A stretch of DNA of 64,000 nucleotides from Spinacia oleracea (lineage: Eukaryota > Streptophyta > Magnoliopsida > Caryophyllales > Amaranthaceae): the NCBI RefSeq assembly GCF_020520425.1, contig NC_079491.1, positions 5,629,143 through 5,693,142 on the forward strand. Reading direction: 5' to 3'. Position 1 is the stretch's first letter; each line of letters opens with the position of its first letter. Shown here piece by piece: positions 3,001 to 42,711 of the stretch. The notes under the pieces were generated by a model. The model did no database searches and was not told the origin of the DNA. It worked only from the letters and a program-made list of their open reading frames with translations. A program made the position numbers and the translations under genes.

Positions 3001-4200
3001 TACTCTACTTTCTAGTAATCATTCCAACAAACATCATTTGACAATATAAAAATCAATTTTAATATTGTCATCTTCACAAAATATAATTTGTTGAAATGAC
3101 TATTAGAAATGAACATGTTAGAATAATATCTTATTAAAAGAAGTAGTTTAGAATGAACCTCCCTTGATATTAAATCAAGTATGTGTATTGTAAGACATTC
3201 CAAAATCTTCAATCAATCCTCCATCACGATATCATGACCACCATTCATCAATCATCTTCTTCCAAGACGTTACTTTTGACTTTCCGTATCCAGAAAAATC
3301 AGGTTCGTTGTTGAAGTTGTAACTGACGACCGCGATCATCCAATGACAATCCGACCGTAGAAAATCAAGCCCAAGATGTCCCGGATATTGTGTCAAAATT
3401 TCAGGACAATCGGACCATGGATGAACCTCGATCCGGATCAATCTTTGAGACTTCTCCCAGAAAAACGTGAATGAAAAACATCTTTGGAAACCCTCTAAAT
3501 TCCCTTTATCTTTCACTCAAACTCACAAATATAAATTTCCTCAAAAATCATAAGAAGTATTTAGCCATTGAAATATATCTCGTTTTCAAATTGTTGTAAT
3601 AATTGGGTTTTCAAGGCAAATACTAGAATAAGAATAAGAACGAGTTTAGGAAATCGTTGCGCCGTGGTAACCAAACCACTGCCTTGAAAACGAGATTCGG
3701 TGCAACCGGGGTGCACAATTGTATCCACCGATTCGTTCCCTAAGGTTTACACAACTCTCAACACACAAAGGCACTTTTGGGTGATGAGATGGAGCCACAT
3801 AAACTTATGCCCAAAAGAATAAGAAGGAAAAGGTTTGAAGAGATACAAATATTCATGACTTAATCATGAACCAAAATTCTTCCATCCAAAACAAAAGGGA
3901 AAGGAGGAGGAGAGGAAGAGATCAATATATGTGTGTACCAACAACTCAGAAAATGAAGAGTACTTATAGGATGTGTGGAGGAGACAAAACAATCCAAAGA
4001 AATCAAAGGTTTCAAAGGAATTCAATGATATTAATCAACCATAAACCCATGATAATGAAGAGTTGATAACCCCCATAATCAAGAGAAATAATGGACCAAC
4101 TTAATCACCATAATCAGAATGATAATTGTCCATAAATAATACTTAAAAGGTTATCATAAAGGAGGAATCCAAAGAGAAGATCAAAAACGGACAACACCAA
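1..4200. other. Unassigned AT-rich repeat-like DNA, no gene recognised
   Basis: No frame here shows a recognisable protein family; the longest open stretches (for example 1048-1482) are low-complexity and lack a family signature. On the minus strand, 3232-3516 is open with fairly balanced composition, but I do not recognise it. The length, uniform composition and absence of host-gene features suggest noncoding parts of a large LTR retrotransposon, such as a long LTR. I found no LTR ends, primer-binding site or polypurine tract to prove this. The assignment is a guess. Confidence 0.3.
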
Positions 4201-4941: not shown

Positions 4942-5374
4942 CTAGTTTAGATCCCGTGCATGCACGGATTTTTATCAATTTTTTCCACAAAATATTTAAA
5001 TGAATATTTCTTAAACTACAGCATAGGTATAACATTTTTAACATACTCGTTTAAATTTATTCATCTAATATGCATATTTAAAATGCTAATATGGTAATTT
5101 GACTAAAATATTGAGTGATATATTAATATATAGATCGCGATTTGACTAAAATCTTATCAATTAAGAATAATTATTATTACGTCGTATCTATTATTGCCAT
5201 AATTTATAAACTAAATTTTGTTTCCATACATAAATAGTTTATAAAAAAAGGAAGAGAATAAAAATAAAATAAAACAAATACACTTTTTTGGGAAAGTGTT
5301 TTTCGACGGGAAAATATCGCACTAGGAATTGACACGTGTCATTCCTGGTGTCTCTTTTAGTATATAGTAATAGA
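4942..5374 (-). mobile_element. Short non-autonomous Helitron, family 2 copy a
   Basis: Read on the minus strand, the element starts TCTATTACTATATACTAAAA just after an A, carries a subterminal palindrome gacacgtgtc, and ends with the hairpin ccgtgcatgcacgg followed by gatctaaactag and then T. An A|T insertion site, a 5' TC end and a 3' hairpin before CTAG are the standard Helitron marks. At 433 bp it carries no Rep/helicase gene, so it must depend on an enzyme supplied elsewhere. Related copies lie near 57807, 58278 and 60479. Confidence 0.8.
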
Positions 5375-5796
5375 TAATAGATAGATAGGTCCACATTGTC
5401 TCCTACAATTTGTGAATACCAATTAGACTTTTGTTGGATCATACATTGATGTACCCATTGACCCACCCACATTATTAGGCCCAAAAGTCCATATTGTCTC
5501 ATCTTTCTTTTTCTGAATTAAAATTTTGAATTTCGAAGTTATGAACTTAAACTTAATTATGGGCCTTAAGTTATGGCTTTATTTGCTGGCCCAAATTTGA
5601 TATTTGATCCGAATATCTGGAGATTTACGGAGTGAGTGATAATGAAAAGGAGGAAGATATGAAAAATCAAAGTGTTGCAACTAAAAGATAACAGGTGTAA
5701 TTATTATATTGGATGCGTGAGTAACATTAGCGTGTGAGTACAAATATACAAAAACCTATGTATACGAAGTATTACATAGCAACTACATATGTATTA
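5375..5796. other. Intergenic, nothing recognised
   Basis: AT-rich sequence without a convincing reading frame, terminal repeat or RNA gene. Confidence 0.5.
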
Positions 5797-6048
5797 CTTC
5801 TGTTTTATAAAGTTCTTTACAATTACTATTTGCACGAACTCCAATGCAATATTTAATTACTAATATATTCAATTTCGTATGTAAAAAAATTATAAAAAGT
5901 TGATATTCTGAAAATACATACGGAGACCAATCTAACAAGATCTTACATGTAATGTTTTGATGTATATAATAGTGAGAATTTATTGTCAAAGTTTTCATAC
6001 TTTGAACACATTTTTCAAAGCGTAAAGAACTTTCAGAAACGGAGGTAG
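5797..6048. mobile_element. Stowaway-like MITE (252 bp)
   Basis: Ends cttctgttttataaagttc and gaactttcagaaacggaggtag are imperfect inverted repeats. Both are flanked by TA, the target duplication of Tc1/mariner-type Stowaway MITEs. The ends are diverged from the ctccctccgt consensus, so this is an older copy. No coding capacity. Confidence 0.7.
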
Positions 6049-6548
6049 TACTTGGTTATTAGACGGATTGGATAGAATCAAGTCAACAGTGGGTGGTGTT
6101 AAGAAAAGGTGGCTTACAATAGCTAGCAAGGGAAGAGCCGAAGAGGAGAGAAAACTAAGTACAAAATACAGTATGAGAATACCAAAACTTATACGTAGTA
6201 CTACGAGTTACGGAGTATTATGATTTTATTTTACAAAATTTTAGAAATATTGCTCTTGCTATACGTCTTGTTATACGTAGTATTAACTTTGTTCAATAAA
6301 GGTCATACCCTATACTACCTCTGTATTCATTTAAATTTTTTTTATTGTGGAGCCGATTCAATAAGATAGAAGATACTTGAAATTAATAGTGCCAATTGTT
6401 TTTTTTTTTGGGTTATAAAAATTATTATGATGACATGAATAAAAAACTATAATACGTTAGCAAATCCCATGAATTTAGGTAAAGCTTAAGGTATTATATA
6501 TATATACGTACAACTGTACAAGTATATATGTTTGGCTTAATGTAAATA
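6049..6548. other. Intergenic, nothing recognised
   Basis: AT-rich sequence with one isolated MITE-like end (ctacctctgt near 6319) but no partner end. No gene signal. Confidence 0.5.
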
Positions 6549-7164
6549 TACAAACTTTTGTATAAGGCGGTCTTTTCTGTAAGACCACCTTGTAGTGGGT
6601 TATATTCGCGGGTCAAATCTTGTTGGGCGGGTTGCGGGTCGAATTATTTGGGTCCTATAAAAAGCTTTTTTTACGCAAATTTTCCCTCATTTCAAATCAC
6701 TGTTCACATTTCAGGGATTGAGGAGAGAGAAAGCTCTGTGATTCTTCGCCGATCCTTCTTCTACAATTCTACTGCCATTCTACTTGATTTCTTCAGATCT
6801 CCGACTCAGCCTCTCTGCTTCATCTTCGTTTCTGCGATTTCGTAAGTTTCTCTTTCGATTTTCTTTCGATTCACCTTCGATTTTGTTTTCTGGTGGTTTG
6901 TGATTGGCTTGTGGTGGGGGCTCATACGCGAATGAGAGCAAGATTTTTGGTGGATTTTATTGATGCAATAATTAAGGCTTACGAAGCAGCGGTGAGGAAG
7001 GTGGCGGCGTTGTCGATTGCGGCGGTAGTGTAGGTCTTCGCTCACCACAAAGGATGCTCGTAAGTCTGCAACCACTGGATCTCCGCCTTCAAAACAGGTC
7101 TGATTTTCTAACATTATTACTCCTATTTGAATGCTAGAGATTTCGATTTATTTCTTTGAAATTA

Positions 7165-7503
7165 TTAGGATTGAGTTTTTATTTGGATTTTCATTTTAGG
7201 TTTTTGTTTTTTGTTTCTTTTTATTAAATTCCGGCGAGAAATTAGGGTTCCAGCGAAGGAAAGAATCAGATCCTCGCCGGCGAGCAGCGAGAGATGAAGG
7301 AGAGGTCGCCGGCGTGAAGATTCAGAGCCGCCATTGTTTGCTGTTATGTGCTCTGATTTTCCTTCATTTCTAATTTGACATATATCAGACCTGTAAATGT
7401 TCTTGTGGTGGTTGTGCTGGTGGCTATGATTCCCCGGTGGCGGCTGTAGCGGTGGCAGCAATGCGAAGGAACAATGCTGCAGAGGCCGCACAAGTCCTAA
7501 CAA
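7165..7503 (-). other. Open GC-rich stretch inside the Mutator-like element
   Basis: An open frame of about 112 codons rich in Pro, His and Arg lies just inside the left end. The composition (ggcgg, gccggcg) is much more GC-rich than the surroundings, as expected for a captured exon or 5' untranslated region. I recognise no domain. It may be non-coding. Confidence 0.25.
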
Positions 7504-7849
7504 CTGTTGTTGGTGGTCGTTGTTGTTAAGGATCTACTTTGTTGTAGTTACAGATTTGTTTTAGTTATAGTTTGGTTATATTTAGTTAATAAATCAAATG
7601 GTTTAGTAATACATTGTATTTTAAAATTGCAAAGAAATGTAATTAATATCCAAATTTGTATTTTAACAATTTTGTTCATTTATAATAGTCATGATTAAAT
7701 AGGTTTTAGTTATGAATAAATTTATTTTAGTTACATATTTGTTATATTTTTTAGTTATTCTTTTTAGTTAAGATTAAATTTCTGGATTTTAGTTAAGTTT
7801 TTTGAGTTTTAGTTATGATTTCGTGAAATTCATTTAATTTAATATGAAA

Positions 7850-9145
7850 TTCAATTAGTTGAGCAATCGAAAAAATTAGTTAAGCATCAAAGACAATTAG
7901 TTAAGCAATTAGACCAATTAGTTAAGTGGTCAAACTAATAAGTTTACAGATATAAATTTGTTAAGCCGAAAATTCAATTAGTTAAGCAAAGAAATCAATT
8001 AGTTAAACAATGAAACTAATTAGTTGAGCTTGAAATTCAATTATTTAAGCTACGAAACCAATTAGTTAAACAATGGAACTAGTCAGTGAAGCAATGGAAC
8101 CAATTAGTTAAGCACAGAACTAATTAGTTAAACCTGAAATTCAATTAGTCAAGTAATGGAACCTAATAGTTAAGCAATGCAACCAATTAGTAAAGCAATT
8201 GAACGATTTAGTTAAAGCAATGAAACCAATTAGTTAAACAATTGAACCAATTAGTTAAGTTTGAAATTCAATTAGTTAAGTTATGGAACTAATTAGTTAA
8301 GCAATGAAACGATTTAGTTAAATCAATGAAACTAATTAGTTAAACCTGAAATTCAATTAGTCAAGTAATGGAACCTAATAGTTAAGCAATGCAACCAATT
8401 AGTTAAGCAATTGAACGATTTAGTTAAAGCAATGAAACCAATTAGTTAAACCTGGAATTCAATTAGTTAAGCAATTGAACCAATTAGTTAAGTTTGAAAT
8501 TCAATTAGTTAAGTAACGAAACTAATTAGTTAAGCAATGAAACGATTTAGTTAAAGCAATGAAACCAATTAGTTAAGCCTGAAATTTAATTAGTTAAGCA
8601 ATTGAACAAATTAGTTAAGTTTGAATTTTAATTAGTTAAGTAATGGAACATTTTAGTTAAGGGTTTTTGAGTCGTAGTTTTTTTTTTTAAAAAAAAATCA
8701 GTTTTAGTTAAACAATGAAATCAATTAGTTAAGCACTGGAACTAATTAGTTATGCACTGGAACCAATTAGTCAAGCAACGAAACCAATTAGTTAAACAAT
8801 GAAACCAATTGATTAAACAATAGAACCAATTAGTTAAGCAATGAAACCAATTAGTAAAGTTTGAAATTTAATTAGTTAAGCAATGAAAAGCAATGGAACA
8901 AATTAGGTAAGCACTGTAATGAATTAGTGAAGCACTGTAACGAATTAGTGAAGCACTGAAACCAATTAGTTAAACATTGAAACTAATTAGTTAAATCGAA
9001 CCGATTAGTTAAGTAATGTAACCTATTAGTTAAGCATTGAAACTAATTACTTAAGCGATGAAACCAATAAGTTTAGAGTTATAAAGAAAATATTTGTTAA
9101 GCCTAATATTCAATTAGTTAAGCAACGAAACCAATCAGTTAAGCA
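7850..9145 (+). repeat. Minisatellite, ~21-bp unit aattagttaagcaatgaaac
   Basis: Dozens of imperfect copies of aattagttaagcaatgaaac(c) run head to tail, with variable spacer words such as cctgaaattc and tttgaaattc. Higher-order blocks recur: for instance the succession around 8120-8220 is closely repeated around 8340-8440, so the array also grew by duplication of several units at once. The same unit occurs four times in the miniature element at 35903-36076. Confidence 0.9.
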
Positions 9146-9149
9146 TAAT

Positions 9150-10730
9150 TTCGTTTTAACTAAAACAATATTAATTTTAACTAAATCAAAACTTTTTTTT
9201 AACTAAAACGAAATTATGCCTAACTATAACAACTTTAATCATAACTAAAACAAATTTAATTATAAATAAAATAATAAAACTAAAATGGAGAAAGATTCAA
9301 CTAAATCATTTTATTTCTTAACTAAATATAACAAAAGTATAACTAAAACAATAATTGACTTAAATGTAACTATATCATTTTATTTTAAACTAAATATAAC
9401 AAAAGTATGACTAAAACAATTCAATTCTTAACTAGAAGGGGATATATTTAATGAGATCAACAAATGTATATTATTGAACTCTCGACAGGGTTATTTAGAA
9501 AGTTAAAACAAATACAATTAGTCAACTAGTACTAGGTGCTTGGGAGTAGTGTGTTTAGTTTAAGCTTCAGTAGTATCTGTCTCATCCTTGCAAGATCGGT
9601 CAGCCTCTAGGGCTTTGGTCTTTGGATCACAACAATAGAAGACTTCTTTTCCTGTTCTTTCTTCCCTCTTTTCTGAACTATAGCCGAAACTTCCTTAGGA
9701 AAGAGCTATGCAATTGTTGGCCAGAAATAACTGCAAAATAAACACGACTATTTAAGGAAAAACTCATTGCTAATTGCTACCAAAGAGAGATAGTAATGGC
9801 TGCCCATATTCACTACACTGCAATAGATTTGCAATTCATTTTTTCTTGCTATCTAAATGCGAAAAAGGCAGAAATGCGAAAAGGCAGAAATGCAAAAAGG
9901 CAATTCATTTTTTCTTGCTATCTACGCAACCTACGACACACCATGGACAGAAAATAGACTCCTCAACTCGTGAGATCAACTGTCAAGATCAACACATTTT
10001 ACCTCCCAACATGAGCTTTGGAGAAAGCACTTGATTATGTTTCATTGCCAAAAACATAATCCATGTATCTAAAGCACATGAAACAGATTCTATGAGTACT
10101 CAAAGCTTTACCTATACATGAAACATATTCTATCAGTAGTTTAATTATGTTCCTGTTACCAATCTTGGTATTAGATAATTAAGAACAATGGCTCTACCAA
10201 CGCTTCTTTCTTAGACACAGTGTAACTTCCCACCAGAGCTGAATGGAAACTCAAAGTGCATGATGGAAGCAGATTAGGGGATTAATATAACAACTCCCAG
10301 GACTTGATCAAATGACACTTACACACTAACACATGACACTAACACATGTAACCAACATTCAGTACAGACAACCCTGTAATCCAGTAATGTAGTAGAACTT
10401 GGCATAACTTTCAAAACCAAATTGGAAGCACATCAAAAGCAAAAATCAATTGTATCCTAGTTCATAAGTTCATAACTAAAGTATCCTAGTTCATAACTAA
10501 AAACAAGAAAAGCATAACTAATTAACATAAACAAATTCATAGCTAAACCAAAACAACCCACACAACAACAAAAATAATCAAACAAAATCTGCAAAATCAA
10601 AAACCTCAATTGCAACTAGAAACACAAAATTAAAAAAAACATGTAAATTAAATACATTACATGTATAACTAAAACACTAAAATTATTAACTAAAACACTA
10701 AAATTCTAAACTAAAACAAAAATTAAATCA
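9150..10730. repeat. Region dispersed with the inverse motif taactaaaac
   Basis: Right of the minisatellite, the word taactaaaac and variants recur (clusters near 9160-9430 and 10490-10730). This is the reverse complement of the tttagttat words that fill 7540-7850. The element therefore has a rough inverted symmetry about position 9150. Confidence 0.6.
9540..9735 (-). pseudogene. Possible captured exon within the Mutator-like element
   Basis: On the minus strand a splice-acceptor-like tattttgcag (9725-9735) is followed by a stretch that reads VSAIVQKRGKKEQEKKSS and, after a frame break, ALEADRSCKDETDTTEA then a stop. Lys/Glu-rich coding-like text after an acceptor suggests the last exon of a captured gene, now frameshifted. 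I cannot name the donor gene. It could be chance. Confidence 0.3.
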
Positions 10731-11059
10731 CCAACAACGTAACCGACCGTCAACATCAACAACCGGCTAATAGCCACAAATCCAAATTCTAAAGTTCAAG
10801 TAAACCCTAATTAATTGAGAGAGAGTTACCAGGAAAAATGAAGGCGGAGGTCGGAGAAGAAAGAGAGGCAGAAGTAAGAGATTCTCCACCGCCTTCCCTA
10901 GCAGCAGCCAACCGCACCTCCACCATCGCCACCTCCTGTCATGAAATCGAAAATCGAAAATCGAAAATTGTAAAATCAATAAATTAAAGAGAACAAACTG
11001 AAAAATAAAAACAACGGAGAACAAATTAAAGAGAAAAATAACGACGGATTGAAACTCAA

Positions 11060-11356
11060 CTAATTAAATGGAGTGACTGAGGTAGCCGGAGATCGATTGA
11101 GGAAGGAGAAAAGGCGAATGAGTGTTTCTAGGGTTTCGGAGGGGACGACGACGAGTACAACGGTGGCGAGGAGGTGAGGAGATCGCTGCAAGGAGGCGCC
11201 GACGACATGGCCGAGTTTTCTTAGGGGAGAGAGAGAGCGTGCAAAGACTTTGGAGGAGAGAGAGAGCAGAGAGAGTTTGAAGGAGGAACTGAGGAAGACG
11301 GAAATGAAAATGAAAGGAGAGAGAAAAAAAATCATATATATGGCGCGTGAGACCAC
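11060..11356 (-). other. Open stretch at the right end of the Mutator-like element
   Basis: An open frame of about 98 codons, hydrophobic at its N-terminus, lies just inside the right end in GC-richer sequence with gagagag tracts. It looks like a captured promoter/5' untranslated region plus exon, or chance. No family is recognised. Confidence 0.2.
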
Positions 11357-11675
11357 GCGCGCGTGGTTGGCTCTTGAGGTCTTTCCTACACGCGCCTATA
11401 AGGCGGTCTTACCGAAAAGTTTCTGATGTAAATATACTAGATTGAGTAAATCCATGATTAGTATAAACTAATAGTTTTCAATAATTAGCACATCCCGCGA
11501 ATTTAGGTTAATTGGAAGCTAGTGTTGATTTTCTCCTACTAAATTATGGACCAACATTGTACGTAATAGGTTAGTACAACTACCTTGTATAGTTGTATTC
11601 TGTATGATGTTGGACAGAGTTGGACGCGTTTGAAAAATTTACCAAAACTTTGCGCGCACATATATTAAGTATGTA

Positions 11676-12771: not shown

Positions 12772-13082
12772 GGCTAACGCTTCACGTCTCCTGTGAGACC
12801 AGTCACACCATCAACTTGATGGTGTGACGAGCGCAAAACCAATAGCGTACCTCCCTTAAAACTATATAAAAAAAAAGTAACAGATCTAAACTATAGAAGT
12901 AACATATCTAAATTAAAAATGTACCTCTCCGAAAACTATTCCGTATAAAGAAAAAGTAACACGTCTAAACTATAGAAATAACATACCTAAACTAAAAAAG
13001 TACCTCATCTAAAATTATAAAAAAAAACTAACAGATCTAAACTATAGAAGTAACATACCTAAACTAAAAAAGTACCTCCTCT

Positions 13083-13123
<41 letters not shown>

Positions 13124-13151
13124 AAAAAGTAACATGTATATATATGTTTTA

Positions 13152-13188
<37 letters not shown>

Positions 13189-13805
13189 TAACATGTCTAA
13201 ACTATAGAAGTAACATACCTAAACGAAAAATGTACCTCCCCTAAAACTATTCCTTATAAAAAAAGTAACATGTCTAAACTATAGAAGTAACATACCTAAA
13301 CTAAAAAAGTACCTCTTCTAAAATTATAAAAAAAAAGTAACATGTCTAAACTATAGAAGTAACATACCTAAACTAAAAAAAACACCTCCTCTAAAATTAT
13401 TCAAAAAAAAAGTAACATGTCTAAACTATAAAAGTAACATACCTAAACTAAGAAGGTATCTCCCCTAAAACTACTCCGTATAAAAAAAGTAACATGTATA
13501 AACTATAAAAGTAACATACCTAAACTAAAAAAAATACTTCCTCTAAAATTATAAAAAAAAAGTAACATGTCTAAACTATAGAAATAACATACCTAAACTA
13601 AGAAGGTATCTCCCCTAAAACTACTCCGTATAAAAAAAGTAACATGTATAAACTATAGAAATAACATACCTAAACTAAAAAAAGTACCTCCTCTAAAATT
13701 ATAAAAAAAAGTAACATATCTAAACTATAGAAGTAACATACATAAATTCGCAAGTGTGAACTGGTCTCACTATCAGTTGATGGTGAGGACAGTCTCATAT
13801 AAGAA
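12772..13805. mobile_element. TIR-like element filled with 72-bp tandem repeats
   Basis: Left part contains gtctcctgtgagaccagtc followed by caccatcaacttgatggtgt. Right part contains ctggtctcactatcagttga and gacagtctcatataag. These are imperfect inverted repeats of a ttatatgagac...gagacc type, each with its own small hairpin. The interior is almost entirely one tandem array. Exact ends are uncertain: ttaatata lies outside both sides (12732, 13814) but may be coincidence in AT-rich DNA. The superfamily is unknown. Confidence 0.55.
12860..13745 (+). repeat. ~72-bp tandem array, about 12 copies
   Basis: The repeated unit runs agtaacatgtctaaactata, then gaagtaacatacctaaac, then a gtacctc segment ending in either ctaaaattat or actattccgtat plus an A run. 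The two unit variants are interspersed. Each unit is itself a loose duplication of a ~22-bp word (agtaacat.ctaaact). Two (TA)n tracts interrupt the array near 13089 and 13156. Confidence 0.85.
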
Positions 13806-14067
13806 TTTGGGTATTAATATAACCATCGTATGTGTGTTAAAAAAAAGTTGAACAAGTAATTGGAATAATTTGTGCAAGTAATTGATACTACGTATAATGC
13901 GTATGTGTAAGTCGATCTAGGCATCTAGCTACACGGTGGTCGGAACGTCGGTTTGTTCGGGCTGGTGGTTTGGTAACGTGGACGACCCATGAAAGTTCTA
14001 ATTAATAGGAGGGCTAAATTAACATACCTAGTACTTCGTTTAAAGGTTTTGTTTAAGTAAAGCTTTA

Positions 14068-20645: not shown

Positions 20646-21719
20646 TTACCGAATTTCCTTTTGAAGGTCTCGTTGGAGAATCCATGAAGGAGGAGGTGAC
20701 CACAATACACCAGTATATTCAGGATAACCAGATATGAGTCCACCATCTCCATCCTCTAAATGAAACACCCGTATTTCATACTCCTTTTCCTTGTACGGCG
20801 AGAAAGAACTTTCATGAAAGACTACACAATTCCCTCTACAACCCGGAAAATCAGCAGTAGATGCAAAGAAACACCAATCAGCCCCCACAAACAGTACTCT
20901 ATCTTTACCAATGGTACGAACTTTAACCCAGTTACCACCCTCTTCGTTTAGCTTGCACACCTCTAAATGTATCCTTCCACAATTGTAAATGTCATTACCT
21001 TTAACAATTAAATACAAGACATTGGAGCGATCATCAACAACAAGACGCTTTTGACTCGATCGATGATAGACATGAGGGTTTGAAACAACACACTCGTATT
21101 TTAATTTTGAGTCATATGAGAAAGCATAAAGTATCCCTTTACCATGGAGGATGAAAACCCTGTTCTGGAATTCAACAATGTCGTCAAATTCCCGATTGGA
21201 ATCGAGGGATAACATCTGATGACGCGTGAGTTCAGTTATGTAAACAATACCAGATTTACGCCGGAAGAATTTGAAGGAATTATCAATTGATGAAGGGTTT
21301 GACAGACAAACAAGTTTAAATCCTGGTTTCCACATGAATCCGATGCAAAGTAAAGAGATGTGACAATCGGATAAATTCAAAATCCAAGGGTGTTCCGTAA
21401 TGATTTTATTGTGAGAAAGTGGGTAGTAAAGTTTGAGCTTACCTTTTTCGAATTCTTCGACAGTGATGAGGAAGGGTTTGGATTCCGGGAATTTACGTGA
21501 TCGGAGAAGACAGACTGCATTCGCTGTTATCTGGAAACTTGGATAGCCAGAAGATATAATAGGTAGGGTTTTAGGGATTTGAGAAGAGATAGAATAACTC
21601 CAATTCTTGAAAACTGATCGGAAATTGTGGGCGTCGAGTTGAGTTTCAAGGTTACCGGCGATCAATGAGAGGATTTCTGTGCAAAGCCCCGACCAATCGG
21701 CTCTCCGGCAAGCCTCCAT
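20646..21719 (-). CDS. F-box protein with DUF295 (KIB1-4-type) domain, intact
   Basis: Encodes 357 residues in one exon from the ATG at 21719. The N-terminus (about residues 8-48, ADWSGLCTEILSLIAGNLET then RSVFKNWS) is an F-box of the kind that binds SKP1 in SCF ubiquitin ligases. The rest (about 55-330) matches the DUF295/KIB1-4 beta-propeller family in layout, with the late motif FPGCRGNCVVFHE (about 291-303) and RVFHLEDG. Family members are of this length, so it looks complete. The likely role is substrate selection for ubiquitination in nucleus or cytosol; the substrate is unknown. A frameshifted paralogue lies at 31164-32333, and a Helitron sits 74 bp downstream of the stop. DUF295 genes expand readily in plants, so orthology cannot be named. 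Confidence 0.85.
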   Translation of the reverse strand: MEACRRADWSGLCTEILSLIAGNLETQLDAHNFRSVFKNWSYSISSQIPKTLPIISSGYPSFQITANAVCLLRSRKFPESKPFLITVEEFEKGKLKLYYPLSHNKIITEHPWILNLSDCHISLLCIGFMWKPGFKLVCLSNPSSIDNSFKFFRRKSGIVYITELTRHQMLSLDSNREFDDIVEFQNRVFILHGKGILYAFSYDSKLKYECVVSNPHVYHRSSQKRLVVDDRSNVLYLIVKGNDIYNCGRIHLEVCKLNEEGGNWVKVRTIGKDRVLFVGADWCFFASTADFPGCRGNCVVFHESSFSPYKEKEYEIRVFHLEDGDGGLISGYPEYTGVLWSPPPSWILQRDLQKEIR

Positions 21720-21821
21720 TTTATCCAGTCTCCAACAATTGGCGATTACCCTAATTGTTTTATTTGGTAGGGAGGAATAAGAATTTTATTTAGTTGGAAA
21801 ATAATAATATACGGAGTACTA

Positions 21822-24705: not shown

Positions 24706-24918
24706 AGAATCTCTGATAAGAGATTGAGGTTACTCGATCTTGATTGCTTGACAGATTTCATTTCTGTTTGTGATCATTTCATCCTGAGATTTGCTGCGAA
24801 AATTCATTTGATTGTGGATTTTCTTGCGTGAATTTGAGGATTTTCTTGCGAATTTTCTTGCACGAAAATTCATCTTGTGAATTCGTGAAATCACATTGTT
24901 AAATTGAGTGAAATTGTG

Positions 24919-27900
24919 ATGGCGTTTGAGGATTCAAACGAAGATCAGTCGCATACACAGAACAACATGAATCAAGGAGGTAACAATAACAATCTTGATC
25001 CTTATTTCATTGCAAACTCAGACAATCCTACTTCTGCATTGGTGGCTGTAGTATTTTCTGGTACTAATTTCATGCGCTGGAGTAGAAATATCAAGCGAGC
25101 TTTAATTGCTAAAAATAAAGAAGGATTTATCAATGGTGACATAACTAAACCTGCAACAAATCATAAGGATTACTTGAAATGGAAGCGTGCTGATTTTATG
25201 GTAATTAGCTGGATTTTGAGTTCAATGAATCATGATCTAGTTGATGATTTTGGTTACATTGAAACTGCTGAGGAATTGTGGAAGGAATTAACTGAAAGAT
25301 TTGGTCAATCCAATGGACCTCTAATCTATCAGTTGAAAAAGGAAATTGAGAACCTGAATCAGCAGAACATGACTATTGTCAATTACTATGGAAAGCTGAA
25401 GAAACTTTGGGATGAAATGCAGAATTTAAGAGCATTTCCTACCTGTTCTTGTGGTGCTATGTTGCAGTGCAGCTGTAACTTCATGAAGAAGGTTGCAGAA
25501 TTTGAAGAAGAAGACAAGATGATGAAATTTTTGCTTGGTTTGAATGGTGGTTTTGGAAACACTGTGACTAATGTTTTAGCTATGGATCCTTTACCAAATA
25601 TAAATCGAGTATTCTCCATCACTCAGCAGATTGAGAAACAGAAGGAAGTAAGTAATGCTGCAACAGAATGCAATGCCATGAATAGCAGTGCTATGGCTGC
25701 ACAGGCTTACAGAGGTGTTGGATTTACTCAAGGAAAGAAAGATTGGAGAGATCTGAAAAAGGAAAAGCTCCACAAACAATGCACTCATTGCAAAGGGAAG
25801 GGTCATATAGTTGACCAATGTTTCAAGATCATTGGTTATCCTGATTGGTATAACACAATCAAAGCTTCAAAAGGAAGTAATCCACAGGGAAGCAGAATTG
25901 CTGCTAATGCTCACACTAATGCTGAATTTGATAGTCCTCTGGATGATGCTGATAATGACACTGGAACTGTAAGCAATGAGATGCTAAATGCAATCTGTCA
26001 AGAAGTGATGAAAGCTATGAAAGGCAAGCAGCTACAGAACAATACTGGTACTGGAAACAGCTGTTCCTATGTAAATTATGCAGGTACAATTTCCCATTCC
26101 CTTAATTGTTCTGTGAATAAGCTACTTGATGAATGCCTGTGGATTGTGGATTCTGGTGCTTGTGATCATATGACTTACAATGAAAACATGTTGACAAACA
26201 TAAAAACTCTAAATAATCCTATGAAGGTAGGACTACCAGATGGATCTCAATTAACTGTAGAAATCATGGGTGATGTTGTGTTAAGTGATGATCTGATTCT
26301 GCATAATGTGTTGCTGGTTAAAGGTTTTAAACACAACTTGTTATCTGTTGGAAGACTGATAGAACATAATGGTTTTCAAGTTGAATTCACCACTGCTGGA
26401 TACACTTTCCAGGACCCATCTAAGTCTATGTTGATTGGCACTGGGAAAAGAACAAATGGACTCTATTACTTTGTTGCCAGTTCAAGAAATAAGCAATGCA
26501 ATGTTGTGAAACAGCAAGATGAAGCTTCTCAGCATACAAGTTGTCATAATGTGGGAAATTTAGCTGATGTAAGTCAGATACAACTGCCAAATAAGACTAG
26601 TACTAGCATTGCTGTAAATGTGAAAGATCATAGAATGAACCTAGATCTATTGCATGCTAGGTTAGGACATACTTCTCTGTCCAAAATGAAATGTATCAAT
26701 GCTGATTTTTGCAAGGGAATCACTGAATACAATTGTGGTATTTGCTATAGTTCCAAGCAGCATAAATTTCCTTTTGGTATAAGTGAAAGTAGATCTGTTG
26801 CATGCTTTGATTTGATACACCTAGATCTTTGGGGACCTTATAGGGTCAAAAGTCTGGATGGGGCATCATATTTTCTTACTATTGTGGATGATCACAGCAG
26901 AACTACCTGGACATACTTACTGCATAATAAAATGCAGGTTCCGAAAGTTATAACTGAGTTTCTTTCTATGGTAGAAACTCAGTTTAATACAAGAGTTAAG
27001 AAGGTTAGATCAGACAATGGGACTGAAATAGTGAAAGAATCTTGTATATCTTTGTTTGCTGCTAAGGGTATATTGCATGAGAAAAGTGTACCATATACAC
27101 CTCAGCAGAATGGAAGGGTTGAGAGAAAACATAGAAGTCTACTGGAAATTGCTAGGGCTTTGAGATTTCATGCAAATCTTCCCAAGAAATTCTGGGGAGA
27201 ATGCATTTTGACAGCAACTTTCTTAATAAATAAAATTCCCTGTAAGGTATTGGATTGGAAATCTCCATTTGAGGTCATGTTTAAAACTCCTCCAGATTAT
27301 GATAAGCTGAGAGTGTTTGGATCTCTGTGTTTTGCTCATACAAATAGCATACACAGGGATAAGTTTGACTCTAGAACAAGAAAGTGCTTGTTCATTGGAT
27401 ATCCCAGTGGTTACAAGGCATTCAAACTCTATGATCTGGAATCTCACTCTACATTTGTCTCCAGAAATGTGATTTTCTTTGAGACAGTCTTCCCATACAA
27501 AGTGACTTCTCTGTCTGATGTTTCACACCCACCTACACTTGTTCAGTTTAGTTCTGATACATCTCCAGAAAACAACTTACCAGAGTTTGACACCAATTCT
27601 ACTCCTCTTTCTTCTCCACACACTAATACTGATTTCTTGTCTCCTCTGATATCTCAAAACACCCCTAATCACTCTTCTACTTCTGAATCTTCTCATTCTA
27701 TTTCTGAATCCACTCTTTCACCTGTTTTGGACCAAGTTGTTGTTCCAATCACAAACTCTATTCCTAACTCTATCCCTGTTTTAAGACAATCTTCTAGACC
27801 ACTTAAACCTCCTTCCACTTTAAAAGATTTTGTGGGGAGTTACATTCCTCACAGAGAAAAAATCCCTCCATCTGGAAATGACATTGATAGTCAATCTCTA

Positions 27901-29577
27901 TCCTTCAATGTTCATAATTCTGTCTTGAACCCTGGTTCTGTTGAACATGATGATCATTGGTTACTTGCTTTAGCTCTTTCTGATTATGATACTTGGGAAT
28001 CACTTGCCTTTTCTGTCTGTGCTTCTTCTTCTGATCCCAAACACTACAATCAAGCAAAGAATGATGAAAATTGGATACTTGCCATGGATAAGGAGATACA
28101 AGCACTTGAGAGCAATAATACTTGGGAGCTTACTGTCTTGCCAAAGGACAAAAAGGCTATTGGTTCTAAATGGATTTACAGAACTAAACTAAACCCTGAT
28201 TACACCATAGATAAACACAAGGCTAGGCTGGTAGCTATTGGTTATCAGCAGATAGAAGGGAAAGATTTTACTCAAACATTTTCTCCTGTTGCTAAACTTG
28301 CAACTGTACGAATTGTAATTGCACTTGCAGCCATGAGAGGCTGGACATTATATCAACTTGATGTCAATAATGCATTTTTGCATGGATTTCTTGATGAGGA
28401 AGTCTACATGATTCCTCCTGCTGGTTACACTAAGGCAAAACCAGGAGAAGTTTGTAGACTCAAAAGATCTCTTTATGGGTTAAAACAAGCATCAAGGCAA
28501 TGGAACAAAGAGCTGAGTAAATTTCTCAAAACTCTGAAGTTTCAGCAATCTACTCAAGACTATTCTTTATTTACAAGACACCTTGATGGGGAATTTTTGG
28601 TATTGCTGGTTTATGTGGATGATATACTCCTCACTGGTACTTCAATTTCTCAAATTGACAAAGTTAAAGTTGCTTTGGATAATGCCTTTACCATCAAAGA
28701 TCTAGGTCAGTTGGCATACTTTCTTGGTATTGAGGTTCACAGAAATGATAAAGGCATATTTCTCTCACAGAGAAAGTACATCAAAGATATTCTTGTTGAT
28801 GCTGGAATGGAGGAGTGTGATCCTGTTCCTACTCCTTTATCATGTGGCTTAAAACTTTCTACTGATGTTGGTGAACTAATTGATGAACCTGAGGTGTACA
28901 GAAGATTAATAGGAAGGCTATTATACCTCAGTATTACTAGACCTGATCTGTCTTACTGTGTTCAACATCTAAGTCAGTTTGTTCACTCACCAAGAACTCC
29001 TCATTTGCGTGCTGCTCTACATGTTCTCAAATATCTAAAAGGCACTTTAGATGATGGCATATGGTACTCATCAAGTTCTGATATGCAATTGTCAGCATAC
29101 AGTGATGCTGATTGGAGCTCTTGCCAATTCAGCAGCAGATCCCTTAGTGCCTATGCAGTGTTTCTTGGTCCTAATTTAATCTCCTGGAAGACTAAAAAGC
29201 AAAGAACTGTCAGCAAATCCTCTGCTGAAGCTGAATACAGAAGCATGTCAGCTACAGCTAGTGAGTTGGTTTGGATACAAGGTCTGCTTGAAGATCTTCA
29301 AGTGAATATTTCTCTTCCTGTCACTCTATACTGTGATAACACTTCAGCTGAACATTTGGCTCAAAATCCAATGTTTCATGACAAGACTAAACACCTCAAG
29401 AGGGATATGCATTATGTTCGTGAGCAAGTGGAAGCTGGCTTCATCCAAACTGCTCATGTTTCAAGCTCACAGCAACTTGCAGATTTGCTTACAAAGCCTT
29501 TGGCTTCCTCTCAACATCATGCTTTATCTGCCAAGCTTGGACTTATCTCTCGAGTCCAGCTTGAAGGGGGAGTATAG
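24919..29577 (+). CDS. Gag-Pol polyprotein of Copia 1, intact
   Basis: About 1552 residues from the first in-frame ATG at 24919; the frame is open upstream to 24904 but only with a TTG. Domains in order: Gag with zinc knuckle CTHCKGKGHIVDQC (about 287-300); aspartic protease VDSGACDHM (about 409); integrase with an HHCC-type region near LHARLGH and the D-D-E triad in HLDLWGP, RSDNG and VERKHR (about 635, 697, 734); reverse transcriptase with YVDD (about 1231); and RNase H starting YSDADW (about 1394) and ending LADLLTKPL. All catalytic signatures are present. The stop TAG at 29575-29577 lies inside the 3' LTR, whose first bases supply it. The order protease-integrase-RT-RNase H identifies Ty1/Copia. 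Confidence 0.95.
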   Translation: MAFEDSNEDQSHTQNNMNQGGNNNNLDPYFIANSDNPTSALVAVVFSGTNFMRWSRNIKRALIAKNKEGFINGDITKPATNHKDYLKWKRADFMVISWILSSMNHDLVDDFGYIETAEELWKELTERFGQSNGPLIYQLKKEIENLNQQNMTIVNYYGKLKKLWDEMQNLRAFPTCSCGAMLQCSCNFMKKVAEFEEEDKMMKFLLGLNGGFGNTVTNVLAMDPLPNINRVFSITQQIEKQKEVSNAATECNAMNSSAMAAQAYRGVGFTQGKKDWRDLKKEKLHKQCTHCKGKGHIVDQCFKIIGYPDWYNTIKASKGSNPQGSRIAANAHTNAEFDSPLDDADNDTGTVSNEMLNAICQEVMKAMKGKQLQNNTGTGNSCSYVNYAGTISHSLNCSVNKLLDECLWIVDSGACDHMTYNENMLTNIKTLNNPMKVGLPDGSQLTVEIMGDVVLSDDLILHNVLLVKGFKHNLLSVGRLIEHNGFQVEFTTAGYTFQDPSKSMLIGTGKRTNGLYYFVASSRNKQCNVVKQQDEASQHTSCHNVGNLADVSQIQLPNKTSTSIAVNVKDHRMNLDLLHARLGHTSLSKMKCINADFCKGITEYNCGICYSSKQHKFPFGISESRSVACFDLIHLDLWGPYRVKSLDGASYFLTIVDDHSRTTWTYLLHNKMQVPKVITEFLSMVETQFNTRVKKVRSDNGTEIVKESCISLFAAKGILHEKSVPYTPQQNGRVERKHRSLLEIARALRFHANLPKKFWGECILTATFLINKIPCKVLDWKSPFEVMFKTPPDYDKLRVFGSLCFAHTNSIHRDKFDSRTRKCLFIGYPSGYKAFKLYDLESHSTFVSRNVIFFETVFPYKVTSLSDVSHPPTLVQFSSDTSPENNLPEFDTNSTPLSSPHTNTDFLSPLISQNTPNHSSTSESSHSISESTLSPVLDQVVVPITNSIPNSIPVLRQSSRPLKPPSTLKDFVGSYIPHREKIPPSGNDIDSQSLSFNVHNSVLNPGSVEHDDHWLLALALSDYDTWESLAFSVCASSSDPKHYNQAKNDENWILAMDKEIQALESNNTWELTVLPKDKKAIGSKWIYRTKLNPDYTIDKHKARLVAIGYQQIEGKDFTQTFSPVAKLATVRIVIALAAMRGWTLYQLDVNNAFLHGFLDEEVYMIPPAGYTKAKPGEVCRLKRSLYGLKQASRQWNKELSKFLKTLKFQQSTQDYSLFTRHLDGEFLVLLVYVDDILLTGTSISQIDKVKVALDNAFTIKDLGQLAYFLGIEVHRNDKGIFLSQRKYIKDILVDAGMEECDPVPTPLSCGLKLSTDVGELIDEPEVYRRLIGRLLYLSITRPDLSYCVQHLSQFVHSPRTPHLRAALHVLKYLKGTLDDGIWYSSSSDMQLSAYSDADWSSCQFSSRSLSAYAVFLGPNLISWKTKKQRTVSKSSAEAEYRSMSATASELVWIQGLLEDLQVNISLPVTLYCDNTSAEHLAQNPMFHDKTKHLKRDMHYVREQVEAGFIQTAHVSSSQQLADLLTKPLASSQHHALSAKLGLISRVQLEGGV
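29561..29572 (+). promoter_or_regulatory. Polypurine tract of Copia 1
   Basis: ttgaagggggag sits directly before the 3' LTR and would prime plus-strand synthesis. It also encodes the last residues of the polyprotein. Confidence 0.9.
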
Positions 29578-31163: not shown

Positions 31164-32333
31164 TTACCGAATCACCTTTTGACGGTCTACGCAATTCAGT
31201 ATATTCAGGAGAATCCATGAAGGAGGTGGCCACAATACTTGAGTATATTCAGGATAATCAGATATGAGTCCACCATCTCCATCCTCTAAATGAAACACCC
31301 TGATTTCATATGGCGAGAAAGAATTTTCATGAAAGACTACACAATTCCCTCTGCAACCAGGAAAATCCGCAGCAGATGCAAAGAAGCACCAATCAGAACC
31401 CACAAACAGTACTTTATCTTTACCAATGCTATGAACTTTAACCCAGATACTACCCTCAGCTCTCATTTAGTTTACACACCTCTAAATATATCCTTCCACT
31501 ATTGTAAATGTCATTACCCTTAACAACTAAATACAAGATATTGGAGGAATGATCAACAACCAGACGCTTTCGATTTGATTGATCATAGATTCATAGTCAT
31601 GAGTATTAGAAACAACACAATCATACTTCAAGTTATTTGAATCTAACTCATATGAGAAAGCATAAAGTCTCCAATAACTATCGAGGATGAAAACCCTTTT
31701 CTGAAATTCAACAATGTCATCAAATTCTTGATTGTCGTTCAAGGATAAAATCTGATGACGCCTAGGTCCACCTATGTGAACAACACCAGATTTAAACCGG
31801 ATGAATTTGAAGCAGGGATGATCAATATTTTCAATTGATGAAGGGTGCGAAGAAATTGCAGGGTTTGATAGCCAAACAATTTTGGACTCTTTTTTATGGT
31901 AAACCGCTGATTTCAACATGAATCCGATTGAAAGTAAGGAGATGTGACAATCGGATAAATTTATAATCCAACGGTGTTTTTTAAAGATTTGAGTTCGGGA
32001 TAATGGGTAGAAAAGTTTGAGCTTACCTTTTTCGAATTCTTCGACAGTGATGAGGAAGGGTTCGGATTCCGGGAACTTACGTGATCGGAGAAGATAGACT
32101 GCATTCGCTGTTATCTGGAAACTTGAATTTGGGACGACGGGATTTAGGGTTTGGGGATGGCCAGAAGATACAATAGGTAGGGTTTTAGGGATTTGGGAAG
32201 AGAGTGAATAACTCCAATTCTTGCAAACTGATCGGAAATTATGGGCGTCGAGTTGAGTTTGTAGGTGACCGGCAATCAATGAGAGGATTTCTGGGTAAAG
32301 CTCCGACCAATCGGCTCTCCGGCTATCCTCCAT
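31164..32333 (-). pseudogene. Frameshifted paralogue of the F-box/DUF295 gene
   Basis: The minus strand starts MEDSRRADWSELYPEILSLI at the ATG at 32333 and stays in frame with the intact gene at 20646-21719 until about 31590. There the frame shifts after a Tyr-Glu-Ser-Met run and stops at 31527. The shared sequence (KRLVVD, NILYLVVKGNDIYN) continues in another frame. A second shift near 31465, at gagagctgaggg, moves into the frame reading GSIWVKVHSIGKDK to the end at 31164. The F-box and the late FPGCRGNCVVFHE motif survive. At least two indels make a full-length product impossible unless they are sequence errors. The C-terminus is slightly extended compared with the paralogue. Flanking homology shows an old local duplication. 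Confidence 0.85.
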
Positions 32334-32584
32334 TTTCCCCTGTCTCAAAGAGTTGCTGATTACTCTAGATTTTATTTCCGAAACTTTTCTTACATGGATG
32401 AATAAGGATTTTCTTTTTAGGAGTTTTTGTTAGAAATGACCTTTTTTAAAATTCAAAAATTGTGATAAAGTTGTGAAAAGGGATTTAAAATCGATCTTTT
32501 TTTGTGTGGATTGAGACCTACACTTATTTTCCGGTAATTGACTCAATTTTTTGGGCATTGACCCACGTATGCGGGTCACGTGCC

Positions 32585-34785: not shown

Positions 34786-36523
34786 TTATTTGTTAGAAGG
34801 GTACTTAAGAGCATTAAGTTGAATCTTGCGAAGAGCAACTTGACCAAGATCAACACCACAACTATCAGAGAGTTGAATCAAATAAAGAAGAACATCTGAA
34901 AGTTCTTCTCCAAGATGAACTTTCTCTTCTTCTTTCCAGTTTGGTAAACCTCTTTCCACTTCTCCTTTCCATTGGAATATTTCTGATAGTTCTCCCATTT
35001 CTCCTACCTGCATTTTTTAACATTCATTAATTATTTATGTACCACAATCTATATTTATCTATGGTGCGATATTAAAAAGTGTTCCTATAAAAGGTTCATA
35101 CAATAACCTAAGGCGTCGCTAGACCAGAGTACTAGTTTAACTTTATAATAGTTTTACGTTCGGTGGTAGCGTTTGAGATAGCGGATAGTGTTTTTGACAT
35201 ATTCAAAACGCTACTTGTAAAATTATAAATTGTTTAGTGAGGTAGCGGTTAGCAACAGAGATAGTGGTTAGGTAGTTTTTGTCAAACGCTAAAAGTAGTA
35301 GCGTTTGAAGGTAACAAGTAGCGTTAGATAAAATTATAATAAAGTTTTTAACAATATATATAGGTTTTATTGTATTTTACAATCTCAACGACTACTTTTA
35401 CAAAATATTCATTCATACTAGTTATCTGCTAATTTAACAGCTAACTGTTACCCGCTATTATTGATCGCTACCATCTACTCAACCGCTAAACGCTACCTGC
35501 TAGCGCTGGTTTTACCGAACAGGTCATACGTAAACAAACTTAACAAACATAAGTTTATACTTAGGGAGTGCACTTAGGAAAAATTAAAAAATGTTATTTT
35601 TAATTGAAAGCCAATGAAGTTTAATCCTAATTCTAGGTGTTGCTGGGTGCGTCTAAGAATTTGTAATTAGATGGACACCCACGGCCCATGGGCCACATTA
35701 TACATTTGAAAAAACACTAGACAATGCAACCACGCAATAGGCAAACTAGACATTAACCCATGCTAATTGCTTTCTAAACATTGATTAAAATAAATGCATC
35801 CACTAATCAAGCCTAAGCTTCCTTTCATCTAATAAAAGTATATAAACATGGTTTTGATCATTAACTCTATATTTTTATTAGCAAAAATTAGAATATTCAC
35901 ATTACAAACTTTTATATAAGTCGGTCTGACACAGAAGAGTACATTGGTGTCATATAAGTTAAGCAATGAAACTAATTTAGTTAGGCAGTGAAACTAATTA
36001 GTTAAACAATGGAACCAATTAGTTAAGCAATCAAAGTGGTCTTTTCGGTAAGAACGATCTTTCACAAAAGTTATCGTATTCACATAGTTCACCTACTATA
36101 CCGTTCCTTAAAAAAAAAAAAAAATTATTATACCAATGAAATCTTGACCTAATGGTAAAGACTGATGTATGGATTACGGGTTCGAATCTCACATCCCTAT
36201 TTAAAATTTACAACGTAATGCCTTTATAGATTATTCGCAACAAAAAAAAAACATAGCCACAATACTATACGTGATCATTTCCTCTATTAATACAATTTAA
36301 CTCCACAATTTATCAACCACACAATTACATAGATTAATTGGTAAAAGAATTGTTAACGCAACAACATTTGTAAAAAGAAAAGAAAAGAAGTAAATACCAG
36401 AGCCAAAAGAAGGTTCCTAGGAGTATGATGAGGTTCCCATCCTCTTTCCTTAGCAAAATCTCTCATTTTTTGCCTGAGAAGTTCTAGACTTACGCTTTCT
36501 GCTTCCCCTGAAATTCCTGCCAT
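34786..36523 (-). CDS. dCTP pyrophosphatase 1-like (MazG-fold NTP hydrolase)
   Basis: Two exons: 36398-36523 (42 codons, MAGISGEAESVSLELL...) and 34786-35007 (73 residues then stop), joined across a GT-AG intron of 1390 bp in phase 0. The product is 115 residues. The MazG metal-binding pattern EXXE...EXXD is complete: E45/E48 in VGEMGELSE and E77/D80 in GEELSD. The family hydrolyses dCTP and modified dCTPs to the monophosphate plus pyrophosphate, cleaning the nucleotide pool; it usually forms tetramers. Plant members are short, like this one. The ATG at 36523 follows a ctt/aag-rich leader typical of plants. The intron carries a TIR element, a miniature Mutator-like element and a SINE-like piece, all apparently tolerated. 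Confidence 0.9.
35158..35520. mobile_element. TIR element of ggtagcggtt type in an intron
   Basis: Ends gttcggtggtagcgtttgag and cgctggttttaccgaac are imperfect inverted repeats, and the interior has many variants of ggtagcg / cgctacc in mirrored order. It lies in the intron of the dCTP pyrophosphatase gene. The target duplication was not determined, so the superfamily is open (hAT or Mutator-like). Confidence 0.55.
35903..36076. mobile_element. 174-bp miniature of the 4.9-kb Mutator-like element
   Basis: Starts tacaaacttttatataagtc and ends cacaaaagttatcg, matching the ends of the element at 6549-11425. It contains ggtcttttcggtaagaac near the right end and four copies of the aattagttaagcaatg unit. 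A perfect 9-bp duplication tattcacat flanks it (35894-35902, 36077-36085). It lies inside the intron of the dCTP pyrophosphatase gene. Confidence 0.85.
36140..36240 (+). mobile_element. SINE-like tRNA-derived repeat
   Basis: gacctaatggtaaagact (A-box-like) and cgggttcgaatctcacatcc (B-box) are correctly spaced, then a short body before an A run at 36242. It resembles the fragment at 48660-48745. No clear target duplication. Not a tRNA gene: it cannot form an acceptor stem. Confidence 0.55.
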
Positions 36524-42608: not shown

Positions 42609-42711
42609 AGTTGATCAACTGATCCTGCTGTTTTTCGTTCAATTGGTTGAATCAATTGAAGCTTTTCAATCATTCTTTTCTTAGTTTTCTTCTAGAAAAT
42701 TCAATTGCAAG

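What the first reader, a model, noticed from the sequence alone, without database searches (positions are those of the whole stretch)
6549..11425. Large Mutator-like element whose interior is mainly a 21-bp minisatellite
The sequence shows short inverted ends (tacaaactttt / cagaaactttt), a 9-12 bp flanking duplication atgtaaata(tac), and about 1.3 kb of aattagttaagcaatgaaac repeats. Mutator-like elements are known for 9-11 bp duplications and for capturing host DNA. A mobile unit that carries and spreads its own minisatellite would be a way to seed satellite DNA. The gene-like GC-rich ends add a possible Pack-MULE component.
Basis: partly seen in the sequence, partly recalled or inferred. Interest (0 to 1): 0.72.

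Follow-up and report, generated by a model that had tools for sequence, protein, structure and literature searches.

The report
Jumping DNA carrying 21-base repeat arrays
A family of plant jumping genes carries, between its ends, arrays of a 21-base repeat with a conserved 10-base core; the same kind of array fills the non-coding gaps of a larger relative that encodes the jumping enzyme, so the arrays may be docking sites for a protein that keeps the family switched on.

Summary
The finding is real. Window 6549-11425 is a 4,877-bp Mutator-like element (MULE) with a 9-bp target duplication. Of 14 long relatives tested, 12 have their own perfect 9-bp duplication; one sister copy differs by 13 substitutions and one 1-bp gap. 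The window holds a second member, a 174-bp MITE (35903-36076) with about four copies of the same unit. Of 39 MITE relatives fetched, 35 show both ends and 29 of those match at 8-9 of 9 flanking bases (mismatched-pair control 11 of 1190). MITE lengths step by about 21 bp.

A related 11.5-kb element encodes a MULE transposase and, converging on it, a Ulp1-bearing gene. 21-bp arrays fill 8 of its 10 mapped inter-exon gaps: 93 core motifs, none in the mapped exons. In nine arrays compared, the majority base of the first ten positions (AATTAGTTAA) never changes, while most of the spacer drifts. The repeat is thus the family's own DNA. It resembles the tandem motif arrays bound by VANC anti-silencing proteins in Arabidopsis VANDAL elements.

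Docking is inferred, not shown. Genome-wide repeat counts, and whether free arrays exist, could not be obtained. Best filed as a new variant of a known kind.

The parts
6540..6548 (.). left target-site duplication ATGTAAATA of element A
   Evidence: 9-bp length fixed by comparison with relatives
6549..11425 (+). element A: 4,877-bp non-autonomous MULE
6549..6891 (+). left end and GC-rich leader, related to the left end of the coding elements (64-67% to F76/F77) and of L026/L027 (71-72%)
7844..9145 (+). main 21-bp array, consensus AATTAGTTAAGCAATGAAACC, core AATTAGTTAA
9154..9271 (-). degenerate 21-bp units in the opposite orientation (TAACTAAAAC...)
9440..10460 (.). unique interior: present in the 6 A-type copies (split in one); parts at 12 other places at 76-100%; origin open
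10666..10725 (-). short reverse-oriented 21-bp array
11267..11425 (-). right end and leader, about 80% identical to the right end of coding element F76
11426..11434 (.). right target-site duplication of element A
35894..35902 (.). left target-site duplication TATTCACAT of element B
35903..36076 (+). element B: 174-bp MITE of the same family
35953..36037 (+). about four 21-bp units in element B
36077..36085 (.). right target-site duplication of element B

Best explanation
A (6549-11425) and B (35903-36076) are non-autonomous members of one MULE family in this plant genome, most likely mobilised in trans by coding elements (one read end to end, 11.5 kb). SHOWN: 9-bp target duplications; shared ends; a MULE transposase domain and a converging gene with a Ulp1 domain in an element with related ends; arrays of a 10-bp core (AATTAGTTAA) on a 21-bp period in most mapped non-coding gaps of that element; core conserved while most of the 11-bp spacer drifts; array length changing by whole units. 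INFERRED: the arrays are docking sites for an element-encoded DNA-binding factor. 21 bp is about two turns of B-DNA, so the cores would face one side of the helix. The factor would relieve epigenetic silencing of any copy that carries the array, as VANC does for Arabidopsis VANDAL elements. Internal deletions kept the two ends and the array, giving A; further deletion gave B-type MITEs that are little more than ends plus docking array. Slippage, unequal exchange or gap repair after excision makes the 21-bp ladder.
For: Family: 12 of 14 long copies with a perfect 9-bp duplication; A versus L009 13 substitutions and one 1-bp gap in 4,877 bp; 6 A copies in the genome, all 19 candidates scored. 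MITEs: 2060 first-look candidates, 40 scored; 29 of 35 with 8-9 of 9 flanking bases versus 11 of 1190 control pairs; lengths cluster on a 21-bp ladder, Rayleigh p about 8e-9, n=31. Coding source: F76, 11,510 bp, duplication TTTTAAAAT 9 of 9; MULE domain E 2e-19 for one piece, 4e-26 for joined pieces; Peptidase_C48 E 3e-10; 7 left ends lie 9-11 kb from a transposase exon of this clade. Arrays in gaps: 93 plus-strand TTAGTTA cores (9 on minus, 3.6 expected), 0 of 93 in mapped exons against 32.9 by length. Core conservation with position-neutral alignment: core positions 0.81-0.96 in 108 pooled coding-element units; G at position 6 in 0.90, G at position 16 in 0.25, shuffles 0.37 for both (Fisher p 3e-23, on counts rebuilt from these fractions). 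Precedent: VANC21 binds YAGTATTAY; its targets form tandem repeats in introns and upstream regions of VANDAL21, and VANC proteins have variable regions with tandem peptides (PMC5735166, passages and section 9); the Ulp1-bearing gene of F76 also carries a 51-bp tandem repeat in a coding segment.
Against: No protein-DNA, methylation or expression data were available. DUF1985, a domain of VANC, was not found in the mapped pieces of the Ulp1-bearing gene; a plant mobile domain was matched instead, below Pfam's cut-off. Core conservation could partly reflect homogenisation of old arrays; single core positions fall to 0.55-0.65 in single arrays, and spacer position 15 also stays high (0.90, shuffle 0.78). 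The shuffle control used one array only. Exons are less AT-rich, so 32.9 is a generous expectation. A carries part of its units inverted, and one gap of F76 has only inverted cores. Four of 30 long loci (L024, L026, L028, L071) hold no unit at up to 5 mismatches in the stretch read, so an array is not required for every member; L026 moved with a perfect duplication.
Confidence: 0.55

Rival explanations
1. Neutral passenger: a slippage-prone minisatellite arose once in the non-coding DNA of a MULE ancestor and is carried along without function; ladders and deletions are ordinary replication or repair errors.
For: Indels of 21 bp and of 460/481 bp (about 22-23 units) inside the array between copies at 98.7% identity or more; no units in 4 of 30 long loci; tandem repeats carried by transposons are commonplace (PMC6947457, passages).
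Against: Neutral drift would erode all 21 positions alike; in the coding elements mainly the spacer drifts. Cores keep one strand across two genes of opposite direction.
Confidence: 0.3
2. The arrays are internal transposase-binding sites that help synapsis or titrate transposase, rather than anti-silencing sites.
For: Arrays lie between the ends in the shortest mobile members, and the transposase is the best-supported DNA-acting protein of the family.
Against: Arrays sit mid-element in long copies and are spread over many gaps in F76; the first and last ~850 bp of F76 hold no core (positions listed); L026 has a perfect 9-bp duplication with no unit and only 5 plus and 11 minus cores.
Confidence: 0.1
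3. Pack-MULE: the element captured a host minisatellite (and gene pieces) and spreads it.
For: Unique interior 9440-10460 matches parts of 12 other places at 76-100%; middle parts differ between subfamilies.
Against: The same kind of repeat fills gaps of the family's own coding element, and the GC-rich ends match that element.
Confidence: 0.05

Closest known systems
Arabidopsis VANDAL21 / VANDAL6 MULEs with VANC anti-silencing proteins (PMC5735166, passages and section 9; PMC10398659, passages)
   Same: MULE; short AT-rich motif in tandem repeats in introns and upstream regions; repeat number differs between close copies; another gene besides the transposase; coding copy read here has almost no terminal inverted repeat (VANDAL is called non-TIR in PMC13317346, passages)
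   Different: Motif differs (AATTAGTTAA versus YAGTATTAY or AGTTGTCC/AC); 21-bp period with constant core; no DUF1985 found; MITE members made of ends plus array; binding untested
Ulp1-carrying MULEs (KIU/Kaonashi) of eudicots (described in the review PMC13317346, passages; the primary papers were not seen)
   Same: MULE with a second gene carrying a Ulp1 domain; the review says such elements recognise motifs in non-coding regions of their own kind
   Different: Here a weak plant mobile domain match precedes the Ulp1 domain; array-cored short derivatives; sequence kinship to KIU not tested
Transposon-borne minisatellites (Inukai 2004, rice: title seen in the reference list of PMC6947457 only; P. 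gingivalis MITE with minisatellite PMC4596501: abstract start seen; Tetris of D. virilis PMC4079207: abstract start seen)
   Same: A mobile element that carries a tandem repeat
   Different: Here the repeat is traced to non-coding gaps of a coding relative and its core is conserved
Sugar beet minisatellite BvMSat05 (PMC2820488, section 9 and passages)
   Same: 21-bp, AT-rich, highly variable, with head-to-head junctions; A too has units in both orientations
   Different: Representative monomer is different; in the passages seen it is not placed in a MULE ('Mutator' has 0 occurrences); kinship not tested

Membership tests
Mutator-like element (MULE) | 9-11 bp target-site duplication | tested here: met
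   A 9 of 9; 12 of 14 long copies perfect, one 8 of 9, one without left end; F76 9 of 9
Mutator-like element (MULE) | transposase of the MULE family in elements with the same kind of ends | tested here: met
   PF10551 E 2e-19 (one piece) and 4e-26 (joined pieces) in F76; right end 83% identical to the last ~120 bp of A, left 144 bp 77%
Mutator-like element (MULE) | terminal inverted repeats (TIR-MULE) | tested here: inconclusive
   MITEs 0.68 over 45 bp versus 0.47 shuffled; A 0.63 over 30 bp; F76 not above shuffles
MITE (for B and relatives) | short, inverted ends, target duplication, many copies | tested here: met
   2060 candidates but only 40 scored, so the copy number is not measured
VANDAL / VANC system | gene with DUF1985 anti-silencing domain | tested here: not met
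   no DUF1985 match in the seven mapped coding segments of the Ulp1-bearing gene (at E up to 0.01; at E up to 10; HMMER filters may hide weak ones; unmapped exons not scanned)
VANDAL / VANC system | tandem motif arrays in non-coding regions | tested here: met
   0 of 93 cores in mapped exons; 8 of 10 inter-exon gaps hold plus-strand cores, one holds inverted cores only, one is 29 bp
VANDAL / VANC system | element protein binds the motif and removes DNA methylation | not testable with these tools
   needs binding and methylation assays
Ulp1-carrying MULE (KIU/Kaonashi type) | Ulp1 protease domain in a second gene of the element | tested here: met
   Peptidase_C48 E 2.8e-10
Ulp1-carrying MULE (KIU/Kaonashi type) | phylogenetic placement with known KIU elements | not tested
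   no reference sequences at hand
Pack-MULE | captured host gene fragment | tested here: inconclusive
Satellite DNA | long arrays free of the element | not tested
   whole-genome pattern searches with the 21-mer did not complete

The most novel reading that the evidence does not exclude
This MULE family has packaged the docking array of its own anti-silencing system into free-standing MITEs: short elements that are little more than two ends and a helically phased protein-binding array, perhaps at many hundreds of places (2060 first-look candidates, 40 scored). They would ride on the coding elements' transposase and anti-silencing factor and could carry a switchable, factor-recruiting module next to host genes.
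Probability: 0.3. Interest if true: 0.8.

Novelty: new variant of a known kind. Interest (0 to 1): 0.62.

Why it matters
For one family it points to where a mobile minisatellite comes from: the non-coding DNA of the coding transposon rather than captured host DNA. It supplies a natural series from 11.5-kb coding element through array carrier to MITE with 3-9 units, with unit-by-unit length steps. It also gives a sharp, testable prediction, that an element protein reads AATTAGTTAA every 21 bp. If so, sequence-specific anti-silencing by repeat arrays reaches beyond the Arabidopsis cases read here and can be exported to tiny elements.

Tried and rejected
Rejected: 12-bp target duplication (the extra TAC is element sequence); host-gene origin of the GC-rich ends; Pfam hits of six ORFs of A (best E 0.043, chance); relatives among solved structures for the N-terminus of the Ulp1-bearing gene (best E 0.23); plasmid collection (no match); Rfam (no match); tRNAs (none). 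The first unit-conservation measure was biased by its anchor and was replaced by the position-neutral alignment.

Weak points kept: the tandem triplication as a step to satellite DNA rests on one locus (L030). The host is called spinach only by inference (894 Mb in 242 contigs; C1-C6 of 115-189 Mb make up about 879 Mb; 2n=12 seen in the abstract start of PMC5458060); no call names it.
Full report
OBSERVATION. The element call is exact. ATGTAAATATAC occurs only twice in the window, at 6540 and 11426. A whole-genome search with the first 601 bases gave 63 matches at 40 scored places (of 130 candidates); 39 of the 40 start within 5 bases of 6549. The array runs from 7844 to 9145. The genome held has 894 Mb in 242 contigs, and the window lies at C5:5629143-5693142.

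COPIES. Twenty loci were fetched. Thirteen of them, holding 14 copies, could be tested for both ends: 12 copies have a perfect 9-bp duplication, each with its own sequence; L011 has 8 of 9; L025 has lost its left end. Seven loci (L010, L012, L013, L014, L022, L024, L028) were not tested, because no right end was recognised in the stretch held; in L010, L012 and L013 the match to A is split by other DNA and runs off the stretch. A and L009 differ by 13 substitutions and one 1-bp gap in 4,877 bp; A and L011 by 56 substitutions, five 1-2 bp gaps and one 21-bp unit. Six A-type copies exist, one of them split (19 of 19 candidates scored). Of the 20 loci, 17 hold at least 8 units at up to 5 mismatches and L024, L026 and L028 none; of ten more loci with A's first 67-214 bases, five hold 22-30 units, four coding ones hold 3-4 on the plus strand in the first 2.5 kb, and L071 none.

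ARRAY LENGTH. Among close copies (98.7% identity or more) the indels of 8 bp or more inside the array are 21 bp, 460 bp and 481 bp; the last two are about 22 and 23 units. Indels of 12 and 328 bp lie outside it.

SHORT MEMBERS. Element B (35903-36076) has a 9-bp duplication, TATTCACAT. A genome search with B gave 2060 first-look candidates, 40 of them scored. Of 39 relatives fetched, 35 have both ends: 14 with 9 of 9 and 29 with at least 8 of 9 flanking bases equal. Wrongly paired flanks give 1 and 11 of 1190 (a small shift of each end was allowed in both, penalised in the real set). Of the 31 members under 400 bp with at least 7 of 9 (B included), 28 have lengths of 171-174, 213-217, 234-235 or 254-258 bp; the others are 164, 180 and 286 bp. 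The fit to a 21-bp ladder has Rayleigh p about 8e-9; periods 20 and 22 score nearly as high. The relatives share ancestry, so these p-values overstate independence. Folded as one DNA strand, B is more stable than its shuffles (z -3.2).

SOURCE. Several long relatives match A only over its first 66-214 bases. One of them, called F76 here (C3:16589184-16600693, minus strand), was read to its right end: 11,510 bp, duplication TTTTAAAAT 9 of 9, last ~120 bp 83% identical to A. On its minus strand lies a gene with a MULE transposase domain (E 2e-19 for one open piece; 4e-26 for pieces joined with X). On its plus strand, converging, lies a gene with a Ulp1 protease domain preceded by a weak plant mobile domain match, below Pfam's cut-off. 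No claim is made that F76 is active. Seven left ends lie 9-11 kb from a transposase exon of the same clade (150 of 1205 candidates scored). Six have it in the converging direction; the seventh, F77, has two copies of that region in opposite directions.

WHERE THE REPEAT SITS. F76 holds 93 plus-strand TTAGTTA cores and 9 minus-strand ones (3.6 expected from composition), with 21 bp and its multiples the commonest spacings. None of the 93 lies in the coding segments conserved with F77 (4,075 bp; 32.9 expected by length). Those segments leave out unmapped exons, among them the first exon of the transposase gene. Eight of the ten gaps between mapped segments hold plus-strand cores, one holds only inverted cores and one is 29 bp long. 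The cores keep one strand although the two genes run in opposite directions, which argues for a role of the DNA rather than the RNA (inference). In F77, of which 9.9 kb was read, the count is 66 plus and 16 minus.

WHAT IS CONSERVED. All units of nine chosen arrays (A, L016, L027, four in F76, two in F77) were aligned to the A consensus with equal weight at every position. The majority base at positions 1-10 is AATTAGTTAA in all nine. Pooled over the 108 units from F76 and F77, core positions match in 0.81-0.96; positions 11, 12, 16 and 20 match in 0.43, 0.39, 0.25 and 0.20, near the shuffled values of 0.33, 0.26, 0.37 and 0.23 (20 shuffles of one F76 array). The clearest contrast is between two G positions: position 6 at 0.90 and position 16 at 0.25, shuffles 0.37 for both (Fisher p 3e-23 on counts rebuilt from these fractions). 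Against a clean 10-bp site: position 15 (T) is also high at 0.90 (shuffles 0.78), and single core positions drop to 0.55-0.65 in single arrays. In A, L016 and L027 the spacer is fairly uniform too, as expected of recent amplification. The simplest reading is selection on a ~10-bp site at a two-turn spacing with a mostly free spacer; homogenisation of ancient arrays is a partial alternative.

MECHANISM AND PRECEDENT. In Arabidopsis, VANC proteins bind short motifs that form tandem repeats in introns and upstream regions of VANDAL MULEs and cause loss of DNA methylation there (PMC5735166, passages and section 9; PMC10398659, passages). VANC proteins have variable regions with tandem peptides (section 9); a coding segment of the Ulp1-bearing gene of F76 has a 51-bp tandem repeat of 5.1 copies, which TRF did not report in F77. 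A review describes Ulp1-carrying VANC genes in eudicots (PMC13317346, passages); the primary paper it cites was not held. The present family works like that in anatomy: a MULE, almost no inverted repeat in the coding element, a Ulp1-bearing second gene, motif arrays in gaps. It fails one membership feature, DUF1985, in the seven mapped segments of that gene. So 'it works like VANDAL/VANC' is favoured (about 0.55) and 'it is a VANDAL' is not claimed.

ENDS AND PACK-MULE. A's first ~343 bp and last ~160 bp match F76 at 64% and 80%. Most of the interior 9440-10460 (9449-10448 was compared) has no match in the other elements compared (F76, F77, L016, L026, L027, L068-L077) but shares parts with 12 other places at 76-100%.

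LITERATURE. In the titles and abstract starts listed (one search listed none) I saw no paper on this repeat or on a VANC-like array in spinach; the library holds open papers only, and most were not opened. The Spinacia repeat paper PMC7840529 (passages) lists a different 21-bp satellite and has no occurrence of 'Mutator' or 'MULE'. Sugar beet BvMSat05 (PMC2820488, section 9 and passages) has the same period and head-to-head junctions but a different monomer.

Mended: 'every array' and 'nearly every gap' became counts, the outside places of the interior are 12 at 76-100%, L026 is stated with its cores, and array-free loci are counted.

Noticed in passing
window 56849-57374: 526-bp element whose inverted arms are themselves arrays of a 29-31 bp unit (TTTTAGGTGGTAAAAAACAA...), flanked by a 9-bp duplication TTAAATTTA (56840 and 57375): another array-bearing MULE-like element.
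   Followed up: partly
window about 12793-13810; L017 about 5130-6120 (oriented): A further mobile minisatellite: 22-bp/75-bp composite array with shared outer ends in both places; in L017 the 9-bp flank GTTAAAATA appears on both sides by eye, in the window no duplication was found.
   Followed up: partly
L030 (C2:113995500-113996650), 363-888: A MITE left end plus about 94 bp of flanking DNA repeated in tandem (177-bp unit, first two copies 98.9% identical, third runs into the full MITE), a possible newborn satellite with its break point at the array.
   Followed up: partly
L010 793-933: Reverse-oriented 21-bp array just outside an A-type copy, perhaps a neighbouring member of the family.
   Followed up: no
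F77 (L077+L078), element positions about 6466-7399 and 8047-8983: Part of the transposase region is present twice in inverted orientation within one coding element.
   Followed up: no
F76 (L079+L076 read on the minus strand), positions 3624-3887 numbering: A 51-bp (17-residue) tandem repeat in a coding segment of the Ulp1-bearing gene, not reported by TRF in F77.
   Followed up: no
window 24889-29577 and 42685-47277 (+): Two long open frames (1562 and 1530 aa) that look like copia-type retrotransposon polyproteins (family name recalled from the sequence, not searched).
   Followed up: no
window 20646-21785 and 31527-32429 (-): Two related open frames that look like F-box/DUF295-type proteins (recalled, not searched).
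   Followed up: no
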